Below, one piece after another: positions 7,401 through 22,640 of a DNA stretch of 64,000 nt. Numbering within the stretch: the first letter of the stretch is position 1; each line of letters begins with the position of its first letter. This DNA is from Williamsia sp. 1135 (GTDB taxonomy: Bacteria > Actinomycetota > Actinomycetes > Mycobacteriales > Mycobacteriaceae), in assembly GCF_002095395.1 (NCBI RefSeq), contig NZ_MJEI01000105.1, forward strand, positions 1 to 64,000. Direction: 5' to 3'. The notes under the pieces were generated by a model. The model saw nothing but the letters and a program-made list of their open reading frames with translations. It searched no databases and was not told where the DNA came from. Both the position numbers and the translations under genes were made by a program.

Positions 7401-8477
7401 TCGTACGGAGTCCACGTCATCCTCACGGCGGCGCGGTGGGCTGAGGTCCGCCCGGCAATCAAGGATCTGATCGGCAGCAGACTCGAACTGCGACTGGGGG
7501 ATCCGCTCGATTCGGAGATGGGTCGCAAGGTCGCCGGCCTGGTACCCGAAGGCCGTCCCGGTCGTGGTCTCACGGCGCAGCAGCTACACATGCTCGTCGC
7601 ACTGCCCCGAACCGACTCGGAAACCGGTCTCGATACCCTGAGTGCCGCGCTGGCGAGCACGGTCGCGGCCATCTCGGCCCTGTATCCCGGGCGTGCGGCG
7701 ATGGCCGTCCGCAAGTTGACCTCCCACCTCGAGAGGTCCGAGGTGCACACGCGCCTACGCGACGCCGACATCACGCTGGCACCGGGCGAGGTCGCGATCG
7801 GTGTCGGTGAGGCCGAACTCGCGCCGGTCATCCTCGACTTCCGGACCCAGCCGCACTTCCTGGTGTTCGCCGACGTGGAGCACGGCAAGACGAACCTGCT
7901 CCGAAACATCGTCGCCGGATTGATCGAGAACTCCTCTCCGGCCGAGACGAAGGTTGTCCTCGTCGACTACCGGCGCACGATGCTCGGTGTGATCGAGACC
8001 GATCACCTGGCGGGATATGCCACGTCCGCTCAGACCCTGACGCCGATGGTCACCGAGCTCGCAGCTTATTTCACTGCGCGCCTGCCGGGCCCGGACGTCA
8101 CCCAGCAACAGCTCCGCGACCGCAGATGGTGGTCGGGTCCGGACGTCTACATCGTCGTCGACGACTACGACATGGTGGCCACGGGAAGCGGGAATCCTTT
8201 GGCGCCGTTGCTCGATCTCTTGGCCCAGGCCCGCGACATCGGCCTGCATCTCATCGTCGCGCGTCGCTCGGGGGGTGCAGGGCGGGCCCTGTTCGACCCG
8301 ATCATCGGCCGACTCAAAGATCTCTCCTGTGATGGTCTCCTGATGAGCGGAGATCGGGACGAGGGGTATCTGCTCGGGAGGGTCCGCCTGCAGAAGTTGG
8401 TCCCGGGACGCGGGGAGTTGGTGTCCCGTTCGCGTCCGCAGGAGATGATCCAGGTCGCCCACATGTCGCCGCTGTGA
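4464..8477 (+). CDS. eccC4: Type VII secretion FtsK/SpoIIIE-type ATPase EccC (ESX-4, three ATPase domains)
   Basis: The GTG at 4464 (VTTGTTEGFVRRARVP) gives 1337 aa and removes an implausible Trp-rich extension. Two transmembrane helices lie near residues 40-90. ATPase domain 1 has an intact Walker A (GATGSGKSE) and a Walker B-like LFIVVDEF. Domain 2 has GGPQSGKS. Domain 3 has a degenerate P-loop, ADVEHGKT, with Ala replacing the first Gly. EccCa and EccCb are fused, as in ESX-4. EccC powers export and recognises WXG100-type signals. It is divergent from eccD4, and its stop overlaps the next start (GTGA). Confidence 0.92.
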   Translation: MTTGTTEGFVRRARVPVPRAPGGEVNIQVPPDVPRVVPGSLLMKMMPVVMVFAVVGMISMMFVTGGRNMLSNPLFMMFPMMMLMSMFGMYAGAGNRGGGKRAAELNEERKDYFRYLCQVRDEVHETGAAQREALEWSHPEPAALLAVVGGRRMWERRRGDSDFGHVRVGVGSQRLATRLMPPETGPLEDIEPVSAVALRRFVRTHSVVHGLPTAVSLRGFPAINIEGARQETRQLARSMVLELCAFHGPDQLLIAVVTADPGAEAWDWCKWLPHLQHPYERDGMGSARMVYRSLADLEDDLAVDLLERGRFSRSAPPSAARAQLVVVIDDGFVSGDERIVGDAGMEAVCILDLSAPTDGLAVRRGLQLVVREGKIGARSAFGVEEFADMDSLGVAEAEAFARAMARYRLATAAQLVNLEQEAAPSDPGLMNLLGIADATRLDPHTAWAPRSARMRLRVPIGYSASGTPVEIDIKEAAEGGMGPHGLCIGATGSGKSEFLRTLVLSMLASHSPEALNLVLVDFKGGATFLGLDSAPHVAAVITNLEEELSMVDRMRDALSGEMNRRQEVLRAAGNFANVGDYERARASGAPLEPLPALFIVVDEFSELLAQKPDFADLFVAIGRLGRSLHIHLLLASQRLEEGKMRGLDSHLSYRIGLKTFSANESRSVLGVPDAYHLPNVPGSGYLKCDSAEPIRFNTCYVSGPYTPPTGLGLELLPSMAGAGRLKMFTADRIPVDPVVEPEIPVSHEPEPVPVPEPVSGPAVRTLLDTVLDRMAGQGPAAHEVWLPPLDQPPTIDMLVPHWRSPQVGRLEFPLGIVDRPYDQRRDILTVDVSGSRGNVAIVGGPQSGKSNAVRTLILGAAATHTPEQVQFYCLDFGGGSLAGIAGLPHVGSVAGRSDMDAVRRTVAEVTTLIRSRELRFADAGIESMRDFRSRRRAGDSVLSDDVFGDLFLVVDGYAAIRGEFEFLESQINTIVAQGLSYGVHVILTAARWAEVRPAIKDLIGSRLELRLGDPLDSEMGRKVAGLVPEGRPGRGLTAQQLHMLVALPRTDSETGLDTLSAALASTVAAISALYPGRAAMAVRKLTSHLERSEVHTRLRDADITLAPGEVAIGVGEAELAPVILDFRTQPHFLVFADVEHGKTNLLRNIVAGLIENSSPAETKVVLVDYRRTMLGVIETDHLAGYATSAQTLTPMVTELAAYFTARLPGPDVTQQQLRDRRWWSGPDVYIVVDDYDMVATGSGNPLAPLLDLLAQARDIGLHLIVARRSGGAGRALFDPIIGRLKDLSCDGLLMSGDRDEGYLLGRVRLQKLVPGRGELVSRSRPQEMIQVAHMSPL

Positions 8478-9685
8478 ACGCGCCACCGATGCGCGCGGCG
8501 GTGGCCGACGTGGCTTATGACCATCTGGAGGTCGGCGGACGTCCGCAGCAACAGGTGGGCACGCTGGTGGCCGCGATCAACGCCTCGACGGTCGTCGTCG
8601 ACGGTGAACGATTGCATTCGGTGCAGGCGTGGAGGCGGCTGTTCGACCGGGCGCTGTCCGGTATCGATGACGTCACCGTCGCCCACCCCAGTACGTGGGG
8701 GACCACCCGGATCTCTGTGTTGCGGCAAGCCGCCACGGTGGCGGGCCGCGAGGTGGAGTTGGTCCCGCGTGCCGTGGTCATCGCGCGCTCGCATCTGGAC
8801 GCCACGGCTCAGCGGGCTCTCGTCATCGAGGTTGCCGGCCGCATCGACATCCACGAGGTCCGGCGCGGCGGTGGTGACTGGCGGATCGCGTCGACAACGG
8901 TTGCCACCGATCAGACCTACGCCGAGCTGGTGGCGGAACTGGCAGACAACGGGGTCGAGGCGATCCTGGTCGACGGGGCCGAATCCGGTGCGGTCGAATC
9001 CGTCCGCAACCGCATCGAGCACGAGACCGTGGTCGGCCGGGTGGCGTGCGTGCGCCGCGCTCTGGTCCACCGGTACGGGGGCGCCACCGCGGTACCGGCT
9101 CCCCTCACGGACGTCGGATCACCGTCACCTGCGGGGGCATCCCGGCGCAGACCGATGTTGGTGGCCGCAGCACTCACCGTCGTTGCGGCCGTCGCCGTGG
9201 TGATCGCCGTCGTCGTCGTGCGAGACGGACCCCAGCCGCAGGCAGCCGTGGTCGATCGGCAGGCGCAGGTCGGCCGCGTCTCGCTGGCGGTGCCAGGGGA
9301 TTGGCGGCAGAGCAGCGAACCGGCCGCCGAGGGGGTCGTATCGCGCACAACCTTCGCCGCCCCGGAGGATGATCGGCGCATCATCCTGCTCCAGAACGCG
9401 GTCCGCAGCACCTCGACGCTGTCGTCGGTGGCCGGCAGCCTGCGCAACCGCATCGATCAGCGCGGCGACGACGTGGTGCAGGAATTCTCCGCCAGCACCC
9501 GTTACGCGGGCCGGGAGGTGATCAGCTATCGCGAGGTGCCGGTGTCCGGCGGAGCCATCCGCTGGTATCTCGTAGTGGCGGCCGGACTGCAGGTCAGCGT
9601 GGGTTGTCAGGCCGGATCGGCAGGGGAGACCATCGACGAGCAGTGCATCATGGCGGTCGGTTCGGCGCGTATCGCCGATCGATGA
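8474..9685 (+). CDS. Type VII secretion-associated protein, Rv3446c family
   Basis: A 403-aa protein starting at a GTG that overlaps the eccC4 stop by four bases. Residues 1 to about 200 resemble an actin/Hsp70-like ATPase remnant (VDGERLHSVQAWRRLFDRAL, then EVELVPRAVVIARSHL). A single transmembrane helix follows at about 235-255 (LVAAALTVVAAVAVVIAVVVV), then an extracytoplasmic domain of about 150 aa with two cysteines near the end (VGCQAG, DEQCIMAVG). This matches the ESX-4-linked Rv3446c family, which immediately follows eccC4 in mycobacteria. Its function is unknown. In M. tuberculosis esxU and esxT come next; here only 185 bases separate it from rplM. Confidence 0.8.
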   Translation: MNAPPMRAAVADVAYDHLEVGGRPQQQVGTLVAAINASTVVVDGERLHSVQAWRRLFDRALSGIDDVTVAHPSTWGTTRISVLRQAATVAGREVELVPRAVVIARSHLDATAQRALVIEVAGRIDIHEVRRGGGDWRIASTTVATDQTYAELVAELADNGVEAILVDGAESGAVESVRNRIEHETVVGRVACVRRALVHRYGGATAVPAPLTDVGSPSPAGASRRRPMLVAAALTVVAAVAVVIAVVVVRDGPQPQAAVVDRQAQVGRVSLAVPGDWRQSSEPAAEGVVSRTTFAAPEDDRRIILLQNAVRSTSTLSSVAGSLRNRIDQRGDDVVQEFSASTRYAGREVISYREVPVSGGAIRWYLVVAAGLQVSVGCQAGSAGETIDEQCIMAVGSARIADR

Positions 9686-9870
9686 TCTCCGCGCCCCAGC
9701 ACTGCAGGTCGTGGGCGTTTTGACCCGCTGTGTGCCTGGCCGGTACTGTTGTCGGTTGGTACGCGACCGCCTGAAATCGGTGTAGTCGAGGCCTGGGTCC
9801 CCACTGGTCGCCAGGAACAACCTCTGCCGCGTGCCCGACCAGCTCCATCCGATCAGACAGAGGACTATCT

Positions 9871-10314
9871 GTGCCTACATACACCCCGAAGGCCGGTGAC
9901 ATCACCCGTACGTGGCATGTCATCGATGCCACCGACGTGGTGCTCGGCCGCCTCGCCGTGCAGAGTGCAACGCTCCTGCGCGGGAAGCACAAGCCGACCT
10001 ACGCACCCCACATGGATGGCGGCGACTTCGTCGTCATCATCAACGCCGAGAAGGTTGCCGTCAGCGGAAACAAGCGCGACGACAAATTGCTCTACCGTCA
10101 CTCCGGTCATCCGGGCGGCCTGAAGTCCCGCACTGTCGGTGAGACCATCGCGACGCATCCGGAACGCCTCGTCGAGAAGGCGATCATCGGGATGCTCCCG
10201 AAGACCAAGCTCGGAAACGCCATGGCATCCAAGCTCAAGGTGTACGCCGGTCCGAATCATCCCCACGTGGCTCAGCAGCCCGTCCCCTTCGAGATCACCC
10301 AGGTTGCCCAGTGA
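9871..10314 (+). CDS. rplM: 50S ribosomal protein L13
   Basis: A 147-aa protein with the L13 core: [46 protein letters not shown] and [14 protein letters not shown]. It binds 23S rRNA early in 50S assembly. The GTG start at 9871 follows a GAGGA-like site. The stop overlaps the rpsI start (GTGA), giving the conserved rplM-rpsI operon. Although ESX-4 lies upstream, the 185-base gap suggests a separate promoter. Confidence 0.98.
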
Positions 10315-10856
10315 CGGCGCCGGAGGAGCAGAACGTGTCCGATCAGACTGACGTGGCCGCCGAAGAAGTTGTGGCCGAAGAAGTTGTTGCCGAGTTCGGT
10401 GCCGACGACTACTCGGTCGACGACAGCGTCGACGCAGAGCCTGCCGCCACCCGCGCACCGGTCGAATTCGATCGCCCGATCCAGACCGTCGGCCGCCGTA
10501 AAGAGGCTGTCGTCCGCGTCCGGATGTCTCCGGGTACCGGCGGGTTCACGCTCAACGGCCGCACCCTCGAGGAGTACTTCCCCAACAAGGTGCACCAGCA
10601 GCTGATCAAGGCCCCGTTTGTCACGGTGGAGCGGAGCGACACGTTCGACATCGCTGCCAAACTGCATGGTGGCGGCCCGTCGGGTCAGGCGGGCGCCCTG
10701 CGTCTGGCCATCGCCCGCGCGTTGATCGAGGTCACTCCCGACGATCGTCCGGCCCTGAAAAAGGCCGGCTTCCTCACCCGTGACCCGCGTGCGGTGGAGC
10801 GCAAGAAGTACGGCCTGAAGAAGGCCCGTAAGGCTTCGCAGTACAGCAAGCGCTGA
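10311..10856 (+). CDS. rpsI: 30S ribosomal protein S9
   Basis: The C-terminal 130 residues are canonical S9: [56 protein letters not shown] and the basic tail ending SQYSKR, which reaches the P-site tRNA. The N-terminus has an acidic Ala/Val/Glu-rich extension of about 55 residues, with a short imperfect repeat ([14 protein letters not shown]), typical of mycobacterial S9. The start is the GTG overlapping rplM; an in-frame GTG at 10335 would remove eight residues. Confidence 0.97.
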
Positions 10857-10900
10857 TTTCTCTACAGGACCCGCGAGCACCAAGGCGGTCTTGGGCACAG

Positions 10901-10930
10901 GCAGGCGTTCAGGATTCACTGGACGCCTGC
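10901..10930 (+). terminator. Probable rplM-rpsI terminator hairpin
   Basis: A 12-bp stem, gcaggcgttcag paired with ctggacgcctgc with one G-U pair, has a 6-base loop and lies 45 bases after the rpsI stop. The downstream T-content is low (ctgttgcgttg), so termination efficiency is uncertain. Confidence 0.45.
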
Positions 10931-11007
10931 CTGTTGCGTTGAAGGACATATCAGGGTGCGGGTCGACCGGCTCGAACGCGTGAAGATCTCGAAGAAAGGG
11001 ATGGTCG

Positions 11008-12345
11008 ATGGGGCGACTGTTTGGAACCGATGGAGTCCGCGGCTTGGCCAACGCCGACCTGACGCCGGAGTTGGCGTTGTCGCTGGCCGAGGCCGCTGCT
11101 CGGGTACTCCCGGTGGGCGGTCATGATGGCCGCACGCGGCCGGTCGCCGTGGTCGGCCGCGACACGAGGGCGTCTGGTGAAATGCTGGACGCCGCAGTGT
11201 GCGCGGGGTTGACCGCTGCCGGTGTCGACGCCGTACGTGTCGGGGTCGTCCCGACGCCGGCCGTCGCCTACTTGACCGATTTCTATGACGCCGCATTCGG
11301 TGTGATGATCTCTGCGTCCCACAACCCCATGCCCGACAACGGGATCAAGTTCTTCGCTGCGGGTGGTCACAAACTCTCCGATGCTGCAGAAGATGCGATC
11401 GAGGCGGCCGCGGGGGCTGCGGTCGTGCGACCGACCGGTGCCGCCGTCGGACGTGTTCGCGACGCCGCCGACGGCATCGACGCCTATCTCGATCACCTGT
11501 CCGGCATCGTCGACGTGAACCTCAAGCCCGTGACGGTGGTCGTCGACTGTGCCCACGGTGCGGCGTACACCGCGGCGCCGCGGGCGTACCGCAGTGCCGG
11601 CGCCACGGTCATCGCACTCAGTGCCGAACCCGATGGCGAGAACATCAACCTCGACTGTGGCTCAACACATTTGGATCACGTGCGTGCCGCGGTGCTCGAC
11701 TACGGAGCCGATCTCGGTCTGGCCCACGACGGTGACGCCGACCGGTGCCTCGCCGTCGATGCTTCCGGTGCCGTCGTCGATGGCGACGCGATCATGGCCG
11801 TGCTCGCCAGCGCGATGAAGGATGCGGGCAGCCTCAAGGACGACACCCTGGTCGCCACCGTGATGAGCAACCTGGGCCTGCACTTGGCGATGACCGCCGC
11901 GGGAATCACCGTGCGCACCACCGCGGTCGGCGACCGCTACGTGCTCGAGGAACTCCGGAAAGGTGGCTTCTCCCTGGGCGGAGAACAATCGGGCCACGTG
12001 GTCATCCCATCGCACGGCACCACCGGCGACGGTATCCTCACCGGCCTGGCCCTCATGGGCCGGATGGCAAGTAGTGGAAAGTCGTTGGCGGAGTTGGCGT
12101 CGATCATGAACGCCCTGCCGCAGGTGCTGATCAACGTCCGTGTGGCCGACAAGAATGTGGTGGCAGCAGCGGAATCCGTACAAGCGGCCGTGGCCGACGC
12201 GGAGACGGAACTGGGCGCCACGGGCCGTGTCTTGCTCCGTCCCTCCGGCACAGAGCAATTGGTGCGGGTGATGGTCGAGGCCGCGACCGCAGAGCAGGCG
12301 CAGTCGGTGGCCGCGAGGATCGCTGCGGCCGTCGAGGCTGCCTGA
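11008..12345 (+). CDS. glmM: Phosphoglucosamine mutase
   Basis: The 445-aa enzyme converts glucosamine-6-phosphate to glucosamine-1-phosphate for UDP-GlcNAc and peptidoglycan synthesis. Visible motifs are the phosphoserine loop [16 protein letters not shown] (catalytic Ser near 101), the Mg-binding loop AHDGDADRC, the sugar-binding GGEQSGH and the phosphate-binding RPSGTE near the C-terminus. The N-terminus [12 protein letters not shown] is conserved. The start follows a GAAAGGGA site. It acts directly after GlmS, encoded at 23.0 kb. Confidence 0.97.
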
Positions 12346-12346
12346 A

Positions 12347-13042
12347 TTGTCCACTGCCGCGGCACATTCTGCCGTTTTGTTCGACTTCTCGGGAACACTT
12401 TTCCGGTTCACTGAACGCGCCGAGTGGTTCACGCACCTGCGCGATGGGTCCGGCAATCCGATACAGGGGCACACGCAGGCCGAGCTGATCCGCCGGATGA
12501 CGGCACCGGTGGGGATTCCCGTCGACCTCGACGACGAAGGCCGATACGCCTGGCAGCGCCGGGACCTCGACCCTGCGCTGCATCGACAGGCTTATCTCGC
12601 GGTCCTGCGGGGCTCGGGCCTCACCTTGCCCGGGCATGCGGAATCACTCTACGAGCGGGTCATCGATCCGCAGTCGTGGGAGCCGTATCCCGATACTGCC
12701 CGGTGTCTGCGCGCGCTGCGGTCTGCGGGCATCGGTGTCGGCGTGGTCAGCAACATCGCATTCGATCTCCGAGACGTCTTCGAGGTCCATGACATGGGCG
12801 GGCTCGTCGACACGTTCACACTCTCGTACGAGGTCGGCATCACCAAACCGGACCCGGTCATCTTCGCCTCCGCCCTGCGGAGCCTCGGCGTTGCGGGTCC
12901 GGGCGCACTGATGGTGGGGGACAGCGAAGAGGCGGATGGTGGCGCCCGCCGCGTGGGATGCGACTTCACGTTGGTCCAGCCGGTACCCGTGCCGCAGCGT
13001 CCCCGCGCCCTGCTCGATGCCGTGGCGCACCTGCTCGACTGA
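12347..13042 (+). CDS. HAD-superfamily hydrolase
   Basis: A 231-aa HAD-fold protein. Motif I is LFDFSGTLF, with the nucleophile Asp present but the usual +2 general-acid Asp replaced by Ser. Motif II is GVVSNIA, motif III lies around Lys in GITKPDPVIF, and motif IV is MVGDSEEAD. The +2 substitution is more typical of non-phosphatase branches such as dehalogenases and phosphonatases. The TTG start is one base after the glmM stop, so it is probably translated with glmM. The substrate is unknown. Confidence 0.75.
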   Translation: MSTAAAHSAVLFDFSGTLFRFTERAEWFTHLRDGSGNPIQGHTQAELIRRMTAPVGIPVDLDDEGRYAWQRRDLDPALHRQAYLAVLRGSGLTLPGHAESLYERVIDPQSWEPYPDTARCLRALRSAGIGVGVVSNIAFDLRDVFEVHDMGGLVDTFTLSYEVGITKPDPVIFASALRSLGVAGPGALMVGDSEEADGGARRVGCDFTLVQPVPVPQRPRALLDAVAHLLD

Positions 13043-15371: not shown

Positions 15372-16226
15372 CTACTTCCGGAGCAGTCGGGTCAGTGGAT
15401 CGATCAGGTCTTCTGTGCCTGGCGGAAGCGCGTCGGGGTCGACGGTCAAGAGTTTGCCGAGGCCGGCGTCCGGGTCGCTGAACGCGGCGTACGTGCTGTC
15501 CTCGGTGAGCTGGTGGAGCAGGAATCCGGTGAGGACGCCTCTGCTGATCTTCTGGGTCTTCCTGTCGTTGCCGCCGGCGCCGAGCTTGGACCGCACACTG
15601 AAACCTTCGGCCAGACCCCGGTTCTCGGTCCGCGGTGCCATCCGGAGCACCGTGTGATCGGCGCCGAGCGCACGCCGCAGGGCGAGTGCGTTGGACGTCA
15701 TCGACTCGAGTTCGCCTGGCGCGACGACGATCAGAGCCGGCACTGTGACCTCGCGCGCAGCAGGCAGGACCGCGCTGCTCGTCGGGGCCGGAAAGAGTGC
15801 GGCAAGTGCTTTGGCCCGATCGCTCCGGGCGGCCGCGAGAGTCGCGGCCGACGCGCCGAAACCGTGGCCGGCCAGACCCAGTCGATGCTTGTGCACGGTG
15901 ATATCGCCTGCACCCAGCCGGACCTCGCTGATCACCGACAACGTCGTCTCGAGGTCGGCAGCCAGCCCCTGATCCGACGCCAGCATGCCCTTTTCGGTGG
16001 TCGGAGCCGCGGCGACGATGCCCCACGACGCCAGGTGCGCCAGGGTCTTGTAGTACTGCTTGGCACCGGTGAGCCAGCCGTGACCGAAGGCGATTCCCGG
16101 GAGGTCTTTCCCCTCGGCGGGGGCATAGAGGGTGCCGGGTAAGCCGACGATCGCCATGTCGCCGCGCAGAACCTTGTGCGGTCCGGTCTTGGACAGCTGC
16201 GAAAGGAGCTTCTTGGGGTTGGCCAC
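15372..16226 (-). CDS. Alpha/beta-hydrolase-fold protein lacking the nucleophile serine (Rv3438-like)
   Basis: The 284-aa product has the dienelactone-hydrolase/chlorophyllase-like arrangement: oxyanion region GIAFGHGWLTG, then strand 5 and nucleophile elbow GLAGHGFGASAA. In that G-x-S-x-G elbow the central residue is Gly122, so the catalytic serine is absent. Its position after the Rv3439c-like operon and before glmS corresponds to Rv3438, a conserved protein of unknown function. It is leftward, 13 bases from the converging small gene. It is probably either non-catalytic or uses another residue. No signal peptide is seen. Confidence 0.7.
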   Translation of the reverse strand: MANPKKLLSQLSKTGPHKVLRGDMAIVGLPGTLYAPAEGKDLPGIAFGHGWLTGAKQYYKTLAHLASWGIVAAAPTTEKGMLASDQGLAADLETTLSVISEVRLGAGDITVHKHRLGLAGHGFGASAATLAAARSDRAKALAALFPAPTSSAVLPAAREVTVPALIVVAPGELESMTSNALALRRALGADHTVLRMAPRTENRGLAEGFSVRSKLGAGGNDRKTQKISRGVLTGFLLHQLTEDSTYAAFSDPDAGLGKLLTVDPDALPPGTEDLIDPLTRLLRK

Positions 16227-16346: not shown

Positions 16347-17759
16347 ATGGATGCCAATGAGATCCGCAGTGCCTATCTCACGTTGATGACCGAACGCGGC
16401 CACACCGTGATTCCCCGCGCACCGCTTGTGCCCAAAGACGACCCGACCACGCTGTTCACAGGCAGCGGAATGCAGCCACTGCTCAAGTATCTGCTCGGCG
16501 CCGAACATCCCGCGGGGAAGCGACTTGCGGACTCGCAGACGTGCCTGAGGTCGCAGGACATCGAAGAGGTGGGCGACAATCGGCACACCACGTTCTTCGA
16601 GATGCTCGGGAACTGGAGTCTCGGCGACTACTTCAAGAGTGAGCAGATTCCGCTGTTCTGGCACTTCCTCACCGAGATCGTCGGTCTCGACCCGAATCGC
16701 ATCTATGTGACCGTGTTCTCGGGTGACCCCGAGAACGGGATCCCGCGCGATGACGAGAGTGCCGACATCTGGACCGAATTGTTCACCAAGGCGGGGGTTT
16801 CCGCCGACCGGGTGGTGCTGCTGACCGAAGAACACGGCAACGAGGTCGGTAATCAGGGCGCGCGGATCGCGTACTACAGCGACAAGAACTGGTGGTCGCG
16901 GTCCGGTGGACCGGAGACGATGCCGGTCGGCGATCCCGGCGGACCCGACAGCGAGGTCTTCTACTACTTCCCGCAGGTCGAGCACGACACCGCGTTCGGG
17001 AAGTACCCACATCAGAACTCCGACGGTGGGCAGTACATGGAGATCGGCAACTCGGTCTTCATGCAATACGCCAAGACGGTGGAGGGCTTCGCCGAATTGC
17101 CCAAGCTCAACGTCGATTACGGCGGTGGCCTCGAACGGATCGCGGCCGCGTCGATCGACAGTCCTGATGTGTACCGGATCAGTCTGCTGTGGCCGATCGT
17201 GCAGAAGATCGAGGAACTGTCCGGGGTCGGGTACGACGACAACACCGTGGCGATGCGGGTCATCGCCGACCACATCCGTGGCGCGGTCTTTCTCGCGGTG
17301 GACGGCGTGGTGCCGTCGAACAAGGAACAGGGATACGTGATGCGTCGGCTGGTGCGTCGAGCGATCCGGTTCGCTCACCAACTCGGCGTCCAGGACAAGC
17401 TGCTGACGCAGCTCGTGCCGGTGGTCGCGGACCTATACACCGACGCCTACCCGGAGGTCGCCGAGCGCCGCGAGAACGTGATCGAGGTGCTGGAGAAGGA
17501 GGAGCGGTCATTCCGTCGCACTCTCGGCAAGGGTCTGCGCGAACTCAAGCGGCTCGGCAAGACCGGTGAGACGGTGACCGGCAAGGATCTGTTCAAATTG
17601 TCCGACACCTTCGGGTTCCCGGTCGAGTTGTCTGCCGAGGAGGCCGTGACCCGTGGGCTGCCGATGACCGTGAATTGGCGGGCGGAGTTCGATGCGGAGA
17701 TCGAGGCACAGCGTGCTCGTTCGCAAGCCTCAACGAAGCTCGGGGCCACCGCCGACTGA
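16347..17759 (+). CDS. Stand-alone alanyl-tRNA synthetase catalytic and tRNA-recognition unit (AlaRS without editing or C-Ala domains)
   Basis: The 470-aa protein covers only the first half of AlaRS (normally 870-900 aa). It has the N-terminal class II catalytic domain (EIRSAYLTLMTERGHTVIP, LFTGSGMQPLLKYLLG, motif 2 TFFEMLGNWSLGDYFK, motif 3 DYGGGLERIAAA) and the helical acceptor-stem recognition domain (DHIRGAVFLAVDGVVPSNK, GYVMRRLVRRAIRF, LSDTFGFPVELS). It ends at the boundary where the editing domain would begin, so it looks like a natural domain protein, not a broken gene. E. coli AlaRS truncated at about residue 461 still charges tRNA-Ala, so activity is plausible. It converges on a DUF2254/MprF-like/esterase operon with a 30-base tail overlap. 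A second, full-length alaS is expected elsewhere. Confidence 0.85.
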   Translation: MDANEIRSAYLTLMTERGHTVIPRAPLVPKDDPTTLFTGSGMQPLLKYLLGAEHPAGKRLADSQTCLRSQDIEEVGDNRHTTFFEMLGNWSLGDYFKSEQIPLFWHFLTEIVGLDPNRIYVTVFSGDPENGIPRDDESADIWTELFTKAGVSADRVVLLTEEHGNEVGNQGARIAYYSDKNWWSRSGGPETMPVGDPGGPDSEVFYYFPQVEHDTAFGKYPHQNSDGGQYMEIGNSVFMQYAKTVEGFAELPKLNVDYGGGLERIAAASIDSPDVYRISLLWPIVQKIEELSGVGYDDNTVAMRVIADHIRGAVFLAVDGVVPSNKEQGYVMRRLVRRAIRFAHQLGVQDKLLTQLVPVVADLYTDAYPEVAERRENVIEVLEKEERSFRRTLGKGLRELKRLGKTGETVTGKDLFKLSDTFGFPVELSAEEAVTRGLPMTVNWRAEFDAEIEAQRARSQASTKLGATAD

Positions 17760-19103
17760 CGGCGACTGGCTGCCCGACTCCGACCCCAGGCCCTGTGGGT
17801 CGGCGACGCTGGCGAGGCGGATGTCGAGGTCGGTCTTCCACTCCGCCCGGACCTGCTGGTCGAGGGCGGCGAGCCGCTCGACCAATGGAGGATGCTGCGC
17901 CGGTGGTGTGCTGGCCTGAAGCGTCAGCAAGAGCGCCCGCAGCCTGCGCTGGACCTGCGTCGTATTGGTGCTGAAGTGCCGGATCTCGTCGGTGGCGAGG
18001 GACACGTAGTCGTTCCAGGTCCGCCGGTAGCCGTGCACCCGCGACAACACCTCCAGGGTCCGGTCGTTGCGTACCCGCGGGGCGAGGAGAAGCAGCAGGT
18101 CTTCGAGGTGGTCGATGGCCTGGACGGCGCGGCCCGGGTCGTTGATGGCGGGGGACAGGGCTTTGAGGGCGACGTCCACGATGGCCTGCAGTGCCGCAGA
18201 GGGACTGACCGCCGGCCGGTGGGCGTCGCCGAAACACATGGTCGCCAGGAGCTGCCGCTGCCTGATCTCGCTCAGGTCGTCCGAGTCCCCATACACCGCG
18301 AACAACGGAGCCTCGTAGGCGACGAAGTCACCGATGCGGGGCAAGACGTCGAGTTGCACGCCCCAACGCGTCCCGAGCCGCTGCAACTGCGGCAAATTGA
18401 TGGCCACGAGTACGCGGCCCTTGCTCGGCAGCCGCCGCAGCCGCACAAGGGTCATCGGGGCGTCGGGATCGATCGTCCCGTAGGGGGCCGGCGCCGCGAC
18501 GGCTCCGGCGGTCGGATCCGAGGACGCGTCGATGAACGTCCGCTTGATCGTCCTGTGCCCTTCATCAGCGATCCAGCGAAGCAACCTGGTGGAATTGAGG
18601 ATTCGGCCGACCTTGCTGACCAGCACCACGAACATGATCGCGCTCGCCACCGCGAGGAAGAGCGCGAACGCACCCGACGCGATCGGTGCCCGGTTGTCCT
18701 CCGACGCCATGTCGGAGGCGACGATCAGCGAGTAGACGAACGTCGCCAGGAAGAGTCCGTTGGACCATCGCATGATCGGATCCTGCTGCAGGACAGGGAC
18801 CACCCGCACCGAGACCTGGGTCGCACCGAATTGCATCGCCAGGGTGGTGGCGGTGAAGACGAGACCGGTCAGGGTGATCATCCCGCCCGCGATAGCGCTG
18901 AGCAGCGTGGCCATGGTTCCGGTGTCCACGGTCTCGGACTCTGTCGCGTTGTCGATGGCGCCGAAGACACCGGTCATCACCACGGCGAGGAAGATCAGCA
19001 TCACGGGCAGTCGCCAGATCCGTACAGAGCCCAGCCGGCGCTTGGTCCGGCGCCACCGCGCCCAGTCGGTGATGAGCCTGCCGAGATCGGCGACCGCCCG
19101 CAT
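17730..19103 (-). CDS. DUF2254 family membrane protein
   Basis: The 457-aa protein has four predicted helices in the N-terminal 170 residues (VMLIFLAVVMTGVFGAI, LSAIAGGMITLTGLVFTATT, LFLATFVYSLIVASDMA, FALFLAVASAIMFVVLVS). A large cytoplasmic region follows with the DUF2254 signatures FGATQVSVRVVP, IVDVALKALSPAINDPGRA and VHGYRRTWNDYV. Function is unknown. It starts nine bases after the MprF-like gene and belongs to the same leftward operon. Its 3' end overlaps the opposing AlaRS-like gene by 30 bases. Confidence 0.8.
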   Translation of the reverse strand: MRAVADLGRLITDWARWRRTKRRLGSVRIWRLPVMLIFLAVVMTGVFGAIDNATESETVDTGTMATLLSAIAGGMITLTGLVFTATTLAMQFGATQVSVRVVPVLQQDPIMRWSNGLFLATFVYSLIVASDMASEDNRAPIASGAFALFLAVASAIMFVVLVSKVGRILNSTRLLRWIADEGHRTIKRTFIDASSDPTAGAVAAPAPYGTIDPDAPMTLVRLRRLPSKGRVLVAINLPQLQRLGTRWGVQLDVLPRIGDFVAYEAPLFAVYGDSDDLSEIRQRQLLATMCFGDAHRPAVSPSAALQAIVDVALKALSPAINDPGRAVQAIDHLEDLLLLLAPRVRNDRTLEVLSRVHGYRRTWNDYVSLATDEIRHFSTNTTQVQRRLRALLLTLQASTPPAQHPPLVERLAALDQQVRAEWKTDLDIRLASVADPQGLGSESGSQSPSVGGGPELR

Positions 19104-19111
19104 CGCTGCGG

Positions 19112-21247
19112 CTATTCCCTGGTGGTCGCGAGTTTGATCATCTGACCGGGCGTGGCGTTCGGCAGGTAGGCACGGGTGAGCGCGACTCCGATGCGCGGTA
19201 GGTCACCCTCGTCCCGGAAGCACATGTACACCGGTTCGTAGCGAGGCTGGAACTTCATCTTGAACGCGTGCAACGACCGGAAGCCGTAGAACGGCTCCAT
19301 TGCCGCACCCATCATGTCGAGCATCCGGTCCATCGCCACCACCTCGCTGGTGTCGTCCTCGGCCCGTGCGAGCGGTGCCCCCGACAACGAGAGGATCTCG
19401 GCGCCCTCGGCTTTGAACGCGAGAGCGGAACTGGCGATGAGGAACTCGATGCACGACCGGAAGCCGTCGTCGCGGCGTCGCATCACGTCGAGGGTCCAGC
19501 CGCGCATGGTGTCTCCGCTACCGAAGACAGGCAGCCACGACAACACTCCGTGCACCGACCCGGTGTCGTCGATGGCCAGGGCCACCCGGACCTCGGGGTC
19601 GAGGGCCTCCTCGACACTGCCGAGCGTGAAGCCCATCTCAGGTAGGCCCTTGTCACCCACCCACTCTTCGGAGATCGCCCGCACCTGGGCCACGACTGCG
19701 AAGGGTTCGTCTTTCAAGGTCGTGAGTCTGAAGGTGATGCCCTCCTTCTTCGCCCGGTTGAGAGCCGATCGGATGTCTTGCCAGGGTTTGCCTTTGAAGG
19801 CCAGCGTCGGCAGGTCGATGATCGTGTCCTCGGCGATTTGCAGGGTTCGCCAGCCCATGTCGCGGGCGATGGAGGCGGTGGCCTCACTGACGGAGAACCA
19901 GCACGGGATTCGCGCGCTGTTCTCGGCCATGTCGGTGAACTCCCGAATGGTCTCCTCGAGTTTCTCGGGTGCGCAGACGGGATCGGCCAACGCGAGAACT
20001 GTGCCGGCGGGACGCTGGTAGCCGATCACACCTTCGCCGTCCTTGGTGAACGCGTACTGGTTGTTCTCCCAGGTGATCATCCAGCTCATGGTGCTGCCGC
20101 CGTACTTCTTCAGGAGGCTGCGGACCTGTTCTGCGGGATTCGAACCACCCATGCCCGCCATGGCTTTCCGGCTGTTCAGCGGGACCATGAACGCATAGCG
20201 GCCACCGAACAAGAGGGTCAGCTCGACGATCCAGAGCAGCCCGGTACCGACGGTGACGGCGCCCTTGCCTTCGAAACTCGAGGTGATCACGGCAATGAGG
20301 ACCAGGACCAGCAGGGCGATGTACAGCAGGCCGTAGACAACGGTGACCCACCAGGCCCATTTACGGCCTCGGCGGAGTTGGTCGGCGATGAGCAATACGA
20401 TCAGGACGCTGACTATCGAACCCCAGCTGAGGCTGTCGTTCGAGTCCGTCGGCCCGAACGGCCCGTCACCTGGGAACACCGCGACCGCGATGTTGACGAC
20501 TCCGATGAGAACCAGTCCGATGAAGCTGATCATCCGGATTTCCTGGCGCGTACGAGGCATGACGCCGGACTCGCTCTTGCTGAAGAACCGCTCGCCGATG
20601 ATCAGCATGACCACCACCGCGATCAGGTGGGTCACGTCCGCCAGCTTGCCTTCGAACAGGAACGAGATGGCCACGTAGGCAAGGAGAACTGCCCGGACCC
20701 GTAGGCGCCAAGGCGACTTCAGGGTGGCGCTGGCGGCGGCGATCGCGGCGACGATGGCGGTGGTGACACCCACGTCGCGCACCTCAGCGAGGTGATCGAC
20801 CCAGGCCCAGCTCGTCGGGCGGAAGATCGCGATGAAGGCGATGGCACCGAGCACACCGATGAGCTGACCCGCGATGGTGACGATCGCGACCCTGACCGTG
20901 CCAAGGAGCCATTCACTCCAGCCCACGACGATCGCGAACAGAAGGGTGATGAAGAGGTAGCTGAGCGGACTGGACTTGAACAACATGCCCGACAGGGGAG
21001 TCCACCATTTGCTCTCGGTCAGCGGTGGGTAGCCGTACGCGATGTCGTTGAACCAGCTCTTGTCGCCGACCGTCTCCCACAGGGCGCCGGTGACGATGCC
21101 GATGACGATGATCGCCACGACGACGGTGGTCGTGAACGGTACTTTGCGCGCGGTCCAGCTGATGGCACCGAACACCTTCGCGAGAGGCGATGGGGCCGCC
21201 GCCGGCTCGGACGGGGGTGCCTCGCTGGGGGTGTCGGTCGTGCTCAT
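19112..21247 (-). CDS. MprF-like aminoacyl-tRNA-dependent lipid transferase (DUF2156/LPG synthase C-terminal domain) with rhomboid-like membrane domain
   Basis: The 711-aa protein has an N-terminal membrane region (about residues 35-360) and a soluble GNAT-type LPG_synthase_C/DUF2156 domain (about 375-700). Diagnostic segments of the latter are WENNQYAFTKDGEGVIGYQR, NRAKKEGITF, EEWVGDKGLPEMGFTLG and the C-terminal FYGFRSLHAFKMKFQPRYEP. Such domains move an amino acid from charged tRNA to membrane lipid, lowering negative surface charge. The first six helices look rhomboid-like (WTPLSGMLFKSSPLSYLF, then GVLGAIAF) but the catalytic GxSG region reads GVTT, so a protease function is unlikely. The nearby AlaRS-like unit suggests alanine as donor amino acid; that is inference. 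Confidence 0.8.
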   Translation of the reverse strand: MSTTDTPSEAPPSEPAAAPSPLAKVFGAISWTARKVPFTTTVVVAIIVIGIVTGALWETVGDKSWFNDIAYGYPPLTESKWWTPLSGMLFKSSPLSYLFITLLFAIVVGWSEWLLGTVRVAIVTIAGQLIGVLGAIAFIAIFRPTSWAWVDHLAEVRDVGVTTAIVAAIAAASATLKSPWRLRVRAVLLAYVAISFLFEGKLADVTHLIAVVVMLIIGERFFSKSESGVMPRTRQEIRMISFIGLVLIGVVNIAVAVFPGDGPFGPTDSNDSLSWGSIVSVLIVLLIADQLRRGRKWAWWVTVVYGLLYIALLVLVLIAVITSSFEGKGAVTVGTGLLWIVELTLLFGGRYAFMVPLNSRKAMAGMGGSNPAEQVRSLLKKYGGSTMSWMITWENNQYAFTKDGEGVIGYQRPAGTVLALADPVCAPEKLEETIREFTDMAENSARIPCWFSVSEATASIARDMGWRTLQIAEDTIIDLPTLAFKGKPWQDIRSALNRAKKEGITFRLTTLKDEPFAVVAQVRAISEEWVGDKGLPEMGFTLGSVEEALDPEVRVALAIDDTGSVHGVLSWLPVFGSGDTMRGWTLDVMRRRDDGFRSCIEFLIASSALAFKAEGAEILSLSGAPLARAEDDTSEVVAMDRMLDMMGAAMEPFYGFRSLHAFKMKFQPRYEPVYMCFRDEGDLPRIGVALTRAYLPNATPGQMIKLATTRE

Positions 21248-21353
21248 CGGCGCCTTTCGTTCGTTGCCGGACCTGCGAGCCGTGACTCGCTGTGCGGGGT
21301 GAGTATGCGAGCGGTGTGCGGAATGTCGCTTGTAAACAGAATTATTGCCTAGT

Positions 21354-22640
21354 TCACGGCAAACCCAGGCGTTTGCCGAGCCATGGCATCTCGAGTTTGA
21401 GTCCAGCCGACCACACGGCGAACGAATGCCCGCCCGGAACGGTATCGAAATGAACGTCCATTCCTGCCGCCTGCGCTGCCTGGAACACCTGGGTCAGGCC
21501 CGGCCGGTACTCGGCATCGTCCTTACCGACGACGAACGCGCCTGCGACTCCGGGGAACTGCTTCGTCTTCATGATGTCCATCGGATTGACGGCGGTGAAC
21601 TTCGCCGAGTCGCCCCCGAAGGCCTGGTCGACGGTGCGTTTGCGATCACCGAGCGTCGGCTCGAGCTGCCCGGACATGTCGAGGAACGTCGGGTAGATCT
21701 CGGGGTAGTTGGTGGTCATCTGAAGCGAACACGTGCCGCCGTAGGAAAGCCCGCCGATCGCCCAGGCCTTGGGGTCGAAGTCGACCTGCAGGTTTGCCTT
21801 GGTCCAGTCCGGGACGTCCTTGGCGAGGTACGTGGCCACGTTGCCGAGTTTCGAGTCCATACAGAGCGGATTGGCGAGTTCGTCGCCGGTGGCGTCGGCG
21901 ACGACCACGATAGGGGACAGTCCCTCGTTGGCGCCGGCATATTGATCCATGGTCTGGGTGAGTCGACCGCCGACGAGCCAGTCCTCTGGCGAGCCGGGCT
22001 GCCCGGCCATCAGGACCAGGACCGGAAGCAGTGGCCGCGGTTCGGTGAAGTACGCGGGCGGCAGGTAGATCTTGGCGGGCCGGGCGTTGAAGTTCGAGGT
22101 CGCGCCGGGGATCGGGGCGGTGATGACGGCGCCCTCGGCGGGAAGACTGCTCGGCTTCTTCCATTGACTCAGTTCGACGGTCTTGATGTCGTTGTTGCGG
22201 GCCTCCTCGAGGGAGATCGTCTTGACGTTGTTGATCCCGAACACAGACCCCACCGTCGGGTACTCGCTGAAATGCTCGTTGATCTGCGAAAAAGCCATCG
22301 TCACGGCGAAGACGGTGGCCAGCACCGTGATGATCCGGCCGAAGACGCCGCTACCCCGGATCAGCCGGGGGACGAGCAGGAGGATCGCGAACACTGCGAG
22401 TCCGCCCCAGATGTAGCAGTTGAGCGGTATCGGGTCGGCGAACAGTTTCCACACGTCTTCGATGAGCCACTTGGCCAGGACCACCAGCAGTATCGACACG
22501 ACAGCCGCAAGGGGGACCACGTACAGGAGGTACACCTTCTGGAACAGCAGGACCAGCCACGCCAGTCCCAGGATTCCCAAGATGAGAATGGCCCACGGCA
22601 CCCAGCCGTCGAGCACCGATGTTTCCCACAGCCAGTTCAT
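21354..22640 (-). CDS. Membrane-anchored esterase (putative esterase/mycolyltransferase-like fold)
   Basis: The 428-aa product begins with four hydrophobic helices (residues about 12-130) followed by an extracytoplasmic alpha/beta-hydrolase domain of the PF00756 esterase type. The nucleophile motif is AIGGLSYGGTCS, an acidic residue is likely in VVGKDDAEY, and the catalytic His is in VPGGHSFAVW. Membrane-anchored or exported esterases of this fold include antigen 85 relatives. It is the first gene of the operon with the MprF-like protein (106-base gap). Aminoacyl-lipid hydrolases paired with aminoacyl-PG synthases are known (PA0919/PA0920 of Pseudomonas aeruginosa), so it may reverse or remodel the lipid product. 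A ribosome site gaaggacacc precedes the ATG. Confidence 0.8.
   Translation of the reverse strand: MNWLWETSVLDGWVPWAILILGILGLAWLVLLFQKVYLLYVVPLAAVVSILLVVLAKWLIEDVWKLFADPIPLNCYIWGGLAVFAILLLVPRLIRGSGVFGRIITVLATVFAVTMAFSQINEHFSEYPTVGSVFGINNVKTISLEEARNNDIKTVELSQWKKPSSLPAEGAVITAPIPGATSNFNARPAKIYLPPAYFTEPRPLLPVLVLMAGQPGSPEDWLVGGRLTQTMDQYAGANEGLSPIVVVADATGDELANPLCMDSKLGNVATYLAKDVPDWTKANLQVDFDPKAWAIGGLSYGGTCSLQMTTNYPEIYPTFLDMSGQLEPTLGDRKRTVDQAFGGDSAKFTAVNPMDIMKTKQFPGVAGAFVVGKDDAEYRPGLTQVFQAAQAAGMDVHFDTVPGGHSFAVWSAGLKLEMPWLGKRLGLP

What the first reader, a model, noticed from the sequence alone, without database searches (positions are those of the whole stretch)
16347..22640. Candidate tRNA-dependent lipid alanylation module: editing-free AlaRS, MprF-like transferase, esterase and DUF2254 protein
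A stand-alone AlaRS (470 aa) ends precisely before the editing domain and converges on an operon for a membrane esterase, a LPG_synthase_C (DUF2156) aminoacyl transferase and a DUF2254 protein. MprF-type enzymes consume aminoacyl-tRNA. LysX in mycobacteria fuses a LysRS to its MprF domain, a precedent for a dedicated synthetase. Esterases next to aminoacyl-PG synthases are known as hydrolases (PA0919/PA0920). I infer that the AlaRS unit charges tRNA-Ala for lipid alanylation and the esterase recycles or remodels the product. The unfused arrangement would be a split form of the LysX idea.
Basis: partly seen in the sequence, partly recalled or inferred. Interest (0 to 1): 0.8.

Follow-up and report, generated by a model that had tools for sequence, protein, structure and literature searches.

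The report
Proofreading-free alanine synthetase for membrane lipids
Some actinobacteria carry a second, shortened alanine-loading enzyme, apparently acquired from the Saccharibacteria lineage, that lacks its proofreading part and often sits beside a gene that attaches amino acids to membrane lipids, which suggests a private alanine supply for the membrane that still has to be tested at the bench.

Summary
Window 16347-17759 encodes a 470-aa AlaRS with a complete catalytic/tRNA-recognition core and nothing after it; the genome also has an AlaRS of about 890 aa. It faces an esterase (PF00756), a non-LysX DUF2156 lipid aminoacyl-transferase and a DUF2254 gene. The esterase-transferase pair resembles corynebacterial pesT/alaDAGS; DUF2254 is accessory (3 of 8 Williamsia loci). 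New here: the short AlaRS is no truncated host copy. It nests within Saccharibacteria-type AlaRS, which have a compact editing domain joined to the core, as two separate actinobacterial clades that each lack exactly that domain. In 28 of 52 short-AlaRS genomes a DUF2156 gene lies within about 8 kb, in both clades, once as a same-strand pair 7 nt apart, twice as LysX. One Williamsia genome lacks AlaRS, transferase and esterase together at this site. dN/dS is about 0.07. Best explanation: a dedicated, editing-free Ala-tRNA supply for lipid alanylation, a trans version of LysX. Against universality: no linkage in 24 of 52, and Brachybacterium and Brevibacterium have the short AlaRS but no detected DUF2156 gene. 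No activity was tested.

The parts
16347..17759 (+). Short AlaRS (470 aa): catalytic and tRNA-recognition core only; no editing domain, no C-Ala
   Evidence: PF01411 positions 1-433 and nothing else; aligned over residues 4-461 to E. coli AlaRS fragment 3hxu; nests in Saccharibacteria-type AlaRS; dN/dS about 0.07
19112..21247 (-). DUF2156/LPG_synthase_C (MprF-type) aminoacyl-tRNA:lipid transferase, 711 aa, non-LysX clade
   Evidence: PF09924 E 8.9e-75; grouped with non-LysX actinobacterial transferases, apart from LysX (quick tree)
21354..22640 (-). Esterase (PF00756) with hydrophobic N-terminus and GLSYGG nucleophile-type motif (seen in the translation), 428 aa
   Evidence: PF00756 E 4.2e-15; next to DUF2156 in 8 of 8 Williamsia genomes that have the module and in other genera
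17730..19103 (-). DUF2254 membrane protein, 457 aa; accessory passenger, 8 bp after the DUF2156 gene
   Evidence: PF10011 E 5.7e-68; between AlaRS and DUF2156 in G000, G002 and G007 only, not in the other 5 Williamsia genomes

Best explanation
The short AlaRS is a second, dedicated alanyl-tRNA synthetase that loads tRNA-Ala for the neighbouring MprF-type transferase. The transferase moves the alanine onto a membrane lipid (diacylglycerol or phosphatidylglycerol, as for corynebacterial AlaDAGS), and the membrane esterase trims or reverses the modification outside. The AlaRS was acquired from the Saccharibacteria lineage and then lost its editing domain. Proofreading is dispensable if the charged tRNA goes to a lipid rather than the ribosome, so Ser- and Gly-tRNA-Ala may also be made and some Ser/Gly lipid is predicted. 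Shown here: gene content, ancestry, clean loss of the editing domain twice, recurrent linkage, purifying selection, retention of key residues. Inferred: charging, channelling to the transferase, identity of the lipid, side and direction of the esterase.
For: Linkage to DUF2156 in 28 of 52 short-AlaRS genomes, in both AlaRS clades; 6 changes of the adjacency state on the tree (22 of 49 rows scored adjacent, the LysX neighbour of G174 counted, G055 and G594 not). In 9 Williamsia genomes the canonical alaS lies on another contig than the DUF2156 genes or (G008) over 600 kb away. G780 carries a 7-nt AlaRS-transferase pair; in G174 a LysX gene follows on the same strand. Empty site in G001. The gene set stays together at different sites: beside glmS in Williamsia, away from it in the 4 g9 genomes checked. 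In family f39, 22 of 22 short-AlaRS genomes have PF09924 against 24 of 58 sampled without (p 3.5e-7). Alanine-activation and tRNA-recognition residues kept in P0001. A mini-AlaRS of this architecture is active (PMC10036535, passages). AlaDAGS of corynebacteria makes Ala-DAG/Ala-PG (PMC10580965, passages).
Against: 24 of 52 short-AlaRS genomes show no DUF2156 within about 8 kb, including 5 of 5 of genus g6, where the gene sits among cobalamin-type genes. Brachybacterium and Brevibacterium have the short AlaRS but no PF09924 hit. 36 of 51 f1 genomes with a full-length P0003-type transferase have no short AlaRS, so the canonical AlaRS must suffice there. The genes are convergent or divergent in most linked loci, so co-transcription is not implied. 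The f39 co-occurrence weakens when only genomes of at least 3.5 Mb are compared (22/22 against 10/15, p 0.007) and is not corrected for relatedness. E. coli N461, the comparable fragment, binds tRNA poorly and fails to complement yeast (PMC10036535). Five linked proteins (four g9 and G283) have lost the conserved Asn for G3:U70. One linked genome, G283, is 7% contaminated and its contigs in question group with g9.
Confidence: 0.62

Rival explanations
1. The short AlaRS is a spare or inhibitor-resistant AlaRS for translation, like AcmD of the ascamycin cluster, kept under exposure to AlaRS-directed compounds; its place near lipid genes is secondary.
For: Patchy distribution (23 of 301 in f1; 22 of 299 in f39). 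Retained in two genomes without any DUF2156 hit and in the g6 cobalamin region. AcmD precedent (PMC12945691, passages).
Against: Recurrent linkage to DUF2156 in two clades and to different transferase types including LysX. Two independent losses of editing would be costly for a translation enzyme (inference). No obvious biosynthetic cluster around the loci, judged by eye from the gene lists only.
Confidence: 0.17
2. The short AlaRS no longer charges tRNA for any pathway but is a neofunctionalised aminoacyl-transferase or ligase, as AcmF is.
For: AcmF is likewise an AlaRS core without editing domain, with a hydrolase gene in its cluster (PMC12945691). Some sublineages lost otherwise conserved residues (motif-3 Glu to Ala in 5 rows, G3:U70 Asn in 5 rows).
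Against: AcmF changed an active-site Asn and Asp; the Asn and Asp that I take to be equivalent, the motif-2 Arg and the motif-3 Arg are kept in all 31 short rows examined (the 19 f39 rows read later were not scored).
Confidence: 0.08
3. Linkage without function: the AlaRS travels as a passenger on mobile segments that also carry lipid-modification genes.
For: AlaRS, transferase and esterase are present or absent together at one site in Williamsia; DUF2254 comes and goes at the same locus; horizontal origin is well supported.
Against: The adjacency state changes 6 times on the tree, with differing transferase types and orientations; strong purifying selection.
Confidence: 0.13

Closest known systems
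AlaDAGS and PesT of Corynebacterium (tRNA-dependent Ala-DAG/Ala-PG synthesis)
   Same: DUF2156 transferase of the non-LysX actinobacterial type with an esterase; AlaDAGS activity and the C. glutamicum delta-pesT delta-alaDAGS strain seen in passages of PMC10580965. That PesT is an esterase adjoining alaDAGS is recalled, not seen
   Different: No dedicated AlaRS appears in the passages seen (the term AlaRS occurs 0 times in that paper's main text)
LysX (MprF fused to LysRS)
   Same: A synthetase dedicated to an MprF-type lipid transferase
   Different: Here separate proteins, AlaRS instead of LysRS, of foreign origin and without editing. The window genome and G001 also carry DUF2156 open frames of LysX length (1128-1201 aa)
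Tupanvirus mini-AlaRS (TuAlaRS)
   Same: Only catalytic and tRNA-recognition domains, no editing or C-Ala; shown active and able to replace yeast AlaRS (PMC10036535, passages)
   Different: Viral, derived from the amoeba host; lacks the conserved Asn/Asp pair that the window protein keeps
AcmD/AcmF/AcmE of ascamycin biosynthesis
   Same: AlaRS supply, tRNA-dependent transfer and a hydrolase that removes alanine, encoded together (PMC12945691, passages)
   Different: Acceptor is a nucleoside sulfamate; the transferase AcmF is itself an AlaRS derivative judged unable to activate alanine; AcmD is reported as an extra AlaRS with greater resistance to ascamycin
Saccharibacteria-type AlaRS (best NCBIfam match of P0001: NF002436, below its cut-off)
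   Same: 55-61% identical to P0001 over the core; parent lineage in the tree
   Different: Retains a compact tRNA_SAD editing domain

Membership tests
Alanyl-tRNA synthetase (class II core) | Catalytic and tRNA-recognition domains (PF01411) with alanine-activation residues | tested here: met
   motif-2 Arg, pocket Trp, Asn, Asp and motif-3 Arg kept in all 31 short rows examined
Alanyl-tRNA synthetase (class II core) | Charges tRNA-Ala | not testable with these tools
   Needs an assay
Full-length canonical AlaRS | Editing domain (PF07973) and C-Ala | tested here: not met
   Only PF01411 found in P0001; ORF ends at 470 aa
MprF/aaPGS (DUF2156) transferases | LPG_synthase_C domain (PF09924) | tested here: met
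   E 8.9e-75
AlaDAGS (alanine-specific DUF2156) | Falls with the Corynebacterium non-LysX homologues, apart from LysX | tested here: inconclusive
AlaDAGS (alanine-specific DUF2156) | Transfers alanine to DAG or PG | not testable with these tools
   Needs lipid analysis
LysX | Synthetase fused to the DUF2156 protein | tested here: not met
   P0003 has no synthetase domain; G174's neighbour, a true LysX, has one
PesT-like esterase | PF00756 fold and linkage to a DUF2156 gene (definition from recall) | tested here: met
PesT-like esterase | Acts on aminoacyl lipids | not testable with these tools
   Needs an assay
AcmF-like transferase | Loss of the active-site Asn and Asp | tested here: not met
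   The Asn and Asp taken as equivalent are kept in all 31 short rows

The most novel reading that the evidence does not exclude
Actinobacteria have at least twice captured the alanyl-tRNA synthetase of the Saccharibacteria lineage (whose cultured members are described as epibiotic parasites of other bacteria, abstract), discarded its proofreading domain each time, and placed it beside lipid aminoacyl-transferases as a private, error-tolerant source of Ala- (and Ser-/Gly-) tRNA. This would insulate membrane modification from translation and widen the set of aminoacyl lipids.
Probability: 0.45. Interest if true: 0.87.

Novelty: new variant of a known kind. Interest (0 to 1): 0.74.

Why it matters
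How MprF-type enzymes divert aminoacyl-tRNA from translation is stated as an open question in a 2023 review (PMC9976931, passage). A transferase with its own unfused, editing-free synthetase would make that question directly testable: remove the private synthetase and see whether lipid modification stops while translation goes on. Two independent losses of an editing domain after transfer would also be a natural experiment on when proofreading is dispensable. Transfer from a lineage described as epibiotic parasites of bacteria would be a case of the smaller partner's translation gene being put to a new use.

Tried and rejected
DUF2254 as a module part: rejected, at this locus in 3 of 8 Williamsia genomes. 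P0005 hydrolase (15372-16226) as a part: rejected, it is a flank kept at G001's empty site.

'Truncated copy of the host's own AlaRS': rejected, 35% identity to the genome's own AlaRS against 55-61% to Saccharibacteria-type, and tree placement.

'Esterase occurs only where the short AlaRS occurs': written as a note after on flanks of 1.5 kb, then dropped, because one search shows the esterase about 2.2 kb from DUF2156 in g23 genomes and beside the other DUF2156 type in g6.

AcmF-like dead enzyme: held unlikely on residues. Leu-to-Met change that abolishes serine misactivation (PMC12143591, abstract and passages): by eye on the alignment the Leu is kept in P0001, so no such compensation is seen there. 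Dedicated tRNA-Ala nearby: none in 49 loci, none in the window; genome-wide not examined. Promoter/terminator scan: no more than shuffles.

First tree: three rows (L148, L149, L152) were translated in a wrong frame; replaced. Smith 2015 and Fields & Roy 2018, the most likely places for a prior mention, are not held, so absence from print rests only on searches, several with capped listings.
Full report
OBSERVATION. The window holds, in this order, glmM (11008-12345), an alpha/beta-hydrolase-like gene (15372-16226, -; only weak Pfam matches), the short AlaRS (16347-17759, +), DUF2254 (17730-19103, -), DUF2156 (19112-21247, -), esterase (21354-22640, -), then glmS and alr (+) (the names glmM, glmS and alr are my reading of the translations). 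The genome belongs to the genus of G005, whose contig length (294113) is that of a Williamsia soli C17 contig. It has two AlaRS genes: an open frame of 891 aa and the 470-aa one. The short protein matches PF01411 only, over the first 433 of 552 positions, and aligns with the E. coli fragment 3hxu over its residues 4-461. So it is a complete catalytic plus tRNA-recognition unit, not a random break.

ORIGIN. The nearest relatives outside Actinobacteria are AlaRS of Patescibacteria, above all Saccharibacteria (55-61% identity; the best 80 of 588 relatives were kept), against 35-36% to the canonical AlaRS of Williamsia genomes. The Saccharibacteria-type enzymes are 626-660 aa; one row (L086) was called from a later start at 586 aa. 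One search shows the core running directly into what one search identifies, for L074, as tRNA_SAD (PF07973). Actinobacterial short forms read end at 460-481 aa, rows cut by a locus edge aside; later ones are 459 aa (L151) to 488 and 494 aa with glutamine-rich tails (L279, L283). In the tree of 81 rows the 49 short forms fall into two clades: A (27 rows: Williamsia, g9, Pseudonocardia, g6, g23, and members of f29, f39 and f40) and B (22 rows: Brachybacterium, Brevibacterium and f39 including Subtercola). Both are nested within the Saccharibacteria-type group (100/100), each with its own editing-bearing relatives (A with L072, 100/96; B with L074 and L075, 100/99). Loss of editing needs two changes. 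A single short clade is rejected by the AU test (p 0.0107; p 0.0039 on the smaller set). Caveats: the relatives are mostly metagenome bins, L072 and L073 are named only 'bacterium' and L075 only 'Patescibacteria group', and the AU values are moderate.

IS IT A WORKING ENZYME. dN/dS between the window and G008 is 0.068/0.991 for the short AlaRS, 0.102/0.990 for DUF2156, 0.141/0.929 for the esterase, and 0.074/0.926 for the canonical AlaRS. In 31 short rows (two identical) the motif-2 Arg, the pocket Trp, the Asn and Asp of the amino-acid site (Asp235 of E. coli is named in PMC12143591) and the motif-3 Arg are kept; the 19 f39 rows read later were not scored. P0001 also keeps the Asn and Asp that align with the G3:U70-reading pair (which positions these are is matched by motif and recall). 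Exceptions: five rows of f39/f40 have motif-3 Glu to Ala; five rows (L032, L033, L040, L042 of g9, and L038 of G283) have lost the G3:U70 Asn; L176 has Val to Asp in the pocket. A viral AlaRS with the same two domains is active and replaces yeast AlaRS, while the E. coli N461 fragment binds tRNA poorly and does not (PMC10036535, passages).

NEIGHBOURHOOD. A DUF2156 gene lies within about 8 kb in 28 of 52: Williamsia 8 of 8, g9 6 of 6, G283, G585, G594 (6 kb away), both Pseudonocardia, 7 of the 19 new f39 loci, and LysX in G174 and G055 (Pfam on G174's). G283 is 7% contaminated and its AlaRS and DUF2156 group with g9, so it may be g9 DNA. It is not seen in 24: 5 of 5 of g6 (which includes Rhodococcoides fascians; between cobN-like and cobG-like genes, names my reading), G411, G490, G565, G654, G071, Brachybacterium, Brevibacterium, and 12 f39 loci (several beside what reads as dcd). 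Flanks are cut short by contig ends in G071, Brevibacterium (L082) and L292.

Orientation varies: convergent in Williamsia, Pseudonocardia, G141, G151 and six f39 loci, divergent in the other four g9 loci, G283 and G585. In G780 the AlaRS and an 888-aa transferase with an N-terminal VTT (DedA-type) domain lie on one strand 7 nt apart. In G174 LysX is the next gene on the same strand; the gap is 77 bp to about 330 bp depending on its start. In G654 a PF00756 esterase follows the AlaRS on the same strand after 46 bp. In four f39 genomes (G951, G864, G745, G911) a hydrolase gene (Abhydrolase_3 in the one scanned) precedes the AlaRS on the same strand by 58 bp. On the tree the adjacency state, with 22 of 49 rows scored adjacent, needs 6 changes. 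As a control, in 9 Williamsia genomes the canonical AlaRS lies on another contig than the DUF2156 genes or, in G008, over 600 kb from them.

PRESENCE AND ABSENCE. In Williamsia, 8 of 9 genomes have both short AlaRS and the P0003-type transferase; G001 has neither, only DUF2156 open frames of LysX length, and only a weak esterase homologue elsewhere (E 2.5e-46). In G001 the hydrolase flank and glmS are about 160 bp apart, and AlaRS, transferase, DUF2254 and esterase give no tblastn hit in the 19-kb region, with glmM, glmS and alr in place. In the four g9 genomes checked the genes are away from glmS, so the group persists at different sites. In f1, 21 of 23 short-AlaRS genomes have a P0003 homologue at E 1e-100 or better, against 109 of 278 without; for g6 and G055 this is the C-terminal-only type of match, not next to the AlaRS. 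The two exceptions (G071, G174) still have two PF09924 genes each. Full-length P0003-type matches occur in 51 f1 genomes by my count of the list, 15 of them with short AlaRS. In f39, 22 of 22 with short AlaRS have PF09924, against 24 of 58 sampled without (p 3.5e-7); limited to genomes of at least 3.5 Mb the second figure is 10 of 15 (p 0.007). Neither comparison corrects for relatedness. Of the 20 short-AlaRS genomes, 18 have PF09924; Brachybacterium (G660) and Brevibacterium (G661) do not.

WHAT IT IS. The transferase falls in the non-LysX clade of actinobacterial DUF2156 proteins, together with those of small-genome g3 species (presumably Corynebacterium) and of g6, well apart from LysX (a quick tree). 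Passages of PMC10580965 state that many Actinobacteria of the CMN group have two MprF paralogues, homologous to AlaDAGS and LysX, that AlaDAGS makes Ala-DAG, with Ala-PG also lost in its mutant, and that a C. glutamicum delta-pesT delta-alaDAGS strain was used. That PesT is the adjoining esterase is recalled. The esterase-transferase pair is therefore a known kind; the added piece is the AlaRS. The simplest reading is a trans-acting counterpart of LysX: a synthetase reserved for the lipid enzyme. Loss of editing fits a product that does not go into protein. It predicts Ser- and Gly-lipids as by-products, as AcmF makes seryl- and glycyl-ascamycin from mischarged tRNA (PMC12945691, passages).

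LIMITS. No activity, expression or lipid evidence exists here. The one-way linkage means the private AlaRS is optional. Unlinked and DUF2156-free cases show that at least some short AlaRS do something else or act in trans. Ten searches of the paper library listed nothing that describes this short AlaRS, but several listings were capped (20 of 115, 20 of 35, 12 of 140, 10 of 36). I read listings, abstracts and passages only, and two key papers are not held.

Noticed in passing
L295 (G780), 8037-12132: Short AlaRS followed after 7 nt by an 888-aa protein fusing a VTT (DedA-type) domain to a DUF2156 transferase; possibly a flippase-transferase fusion with its own synthetase.
   Followed up: partly
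L159 (G174), 7746-12862: Short AlaRS followed on the same strand by a true LysX (DUF2156 plus LysRS), so one locus carries both an AlaRS and a LysRS beside a lipid transferase; the gap depends on the uncertain LysX start.
   Followed up: partly
L032, L033, L038, L040, L042: Loss of the conserved Asn that aligns with the G3:U70-reading residue, all in loci with divergent AlaRS and transferase; tRNA recognition may have changed.
   Followed up: no
L147, L150, L151, L174, L177 (f39/f40 short AlaRS): Motif-3 Glu replaced by Ala in all five, the other scored residues kept.
   Followed up: no
L154, L166, L167, L068, L069 (genus g6): Short AlaRS between cobN-like and cobG-like genes (names my reading); no DUF2156 nearby.
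   Followed up: no
L081 and L082 (Brachybacterium, Brevibacterium): Short AlaRS downstream of what read as ribonucleotide reductase (nrd) genes; both genomes gave no PF09924 hit, so another role is likely there.
   Followed up: partly
L286, L287, L288, L290 (f39): A hydrolase gene (Abhydrolase_3 in L286, the one scanned) lies 58 bp upstream of the short AlaRS on the same strand: a Pfam family other than PF00756 in what may be the esterase's place.
   Followed up: partly
L277, L281, L282, L284, L285, L289, L291 (f39): A tRNA-Gly (CCC) gene lies 0.5 to 3.2 kb from the short AlaRS in all seven; probably shared synteny, not examined.
   Followed up: no
window 17730-19103: DUF2254 gene present at this locus in only 3 of 8 Williamsia genomes and overlapping the AlaRS 3' end by 30 bp.
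   Followed up: yes
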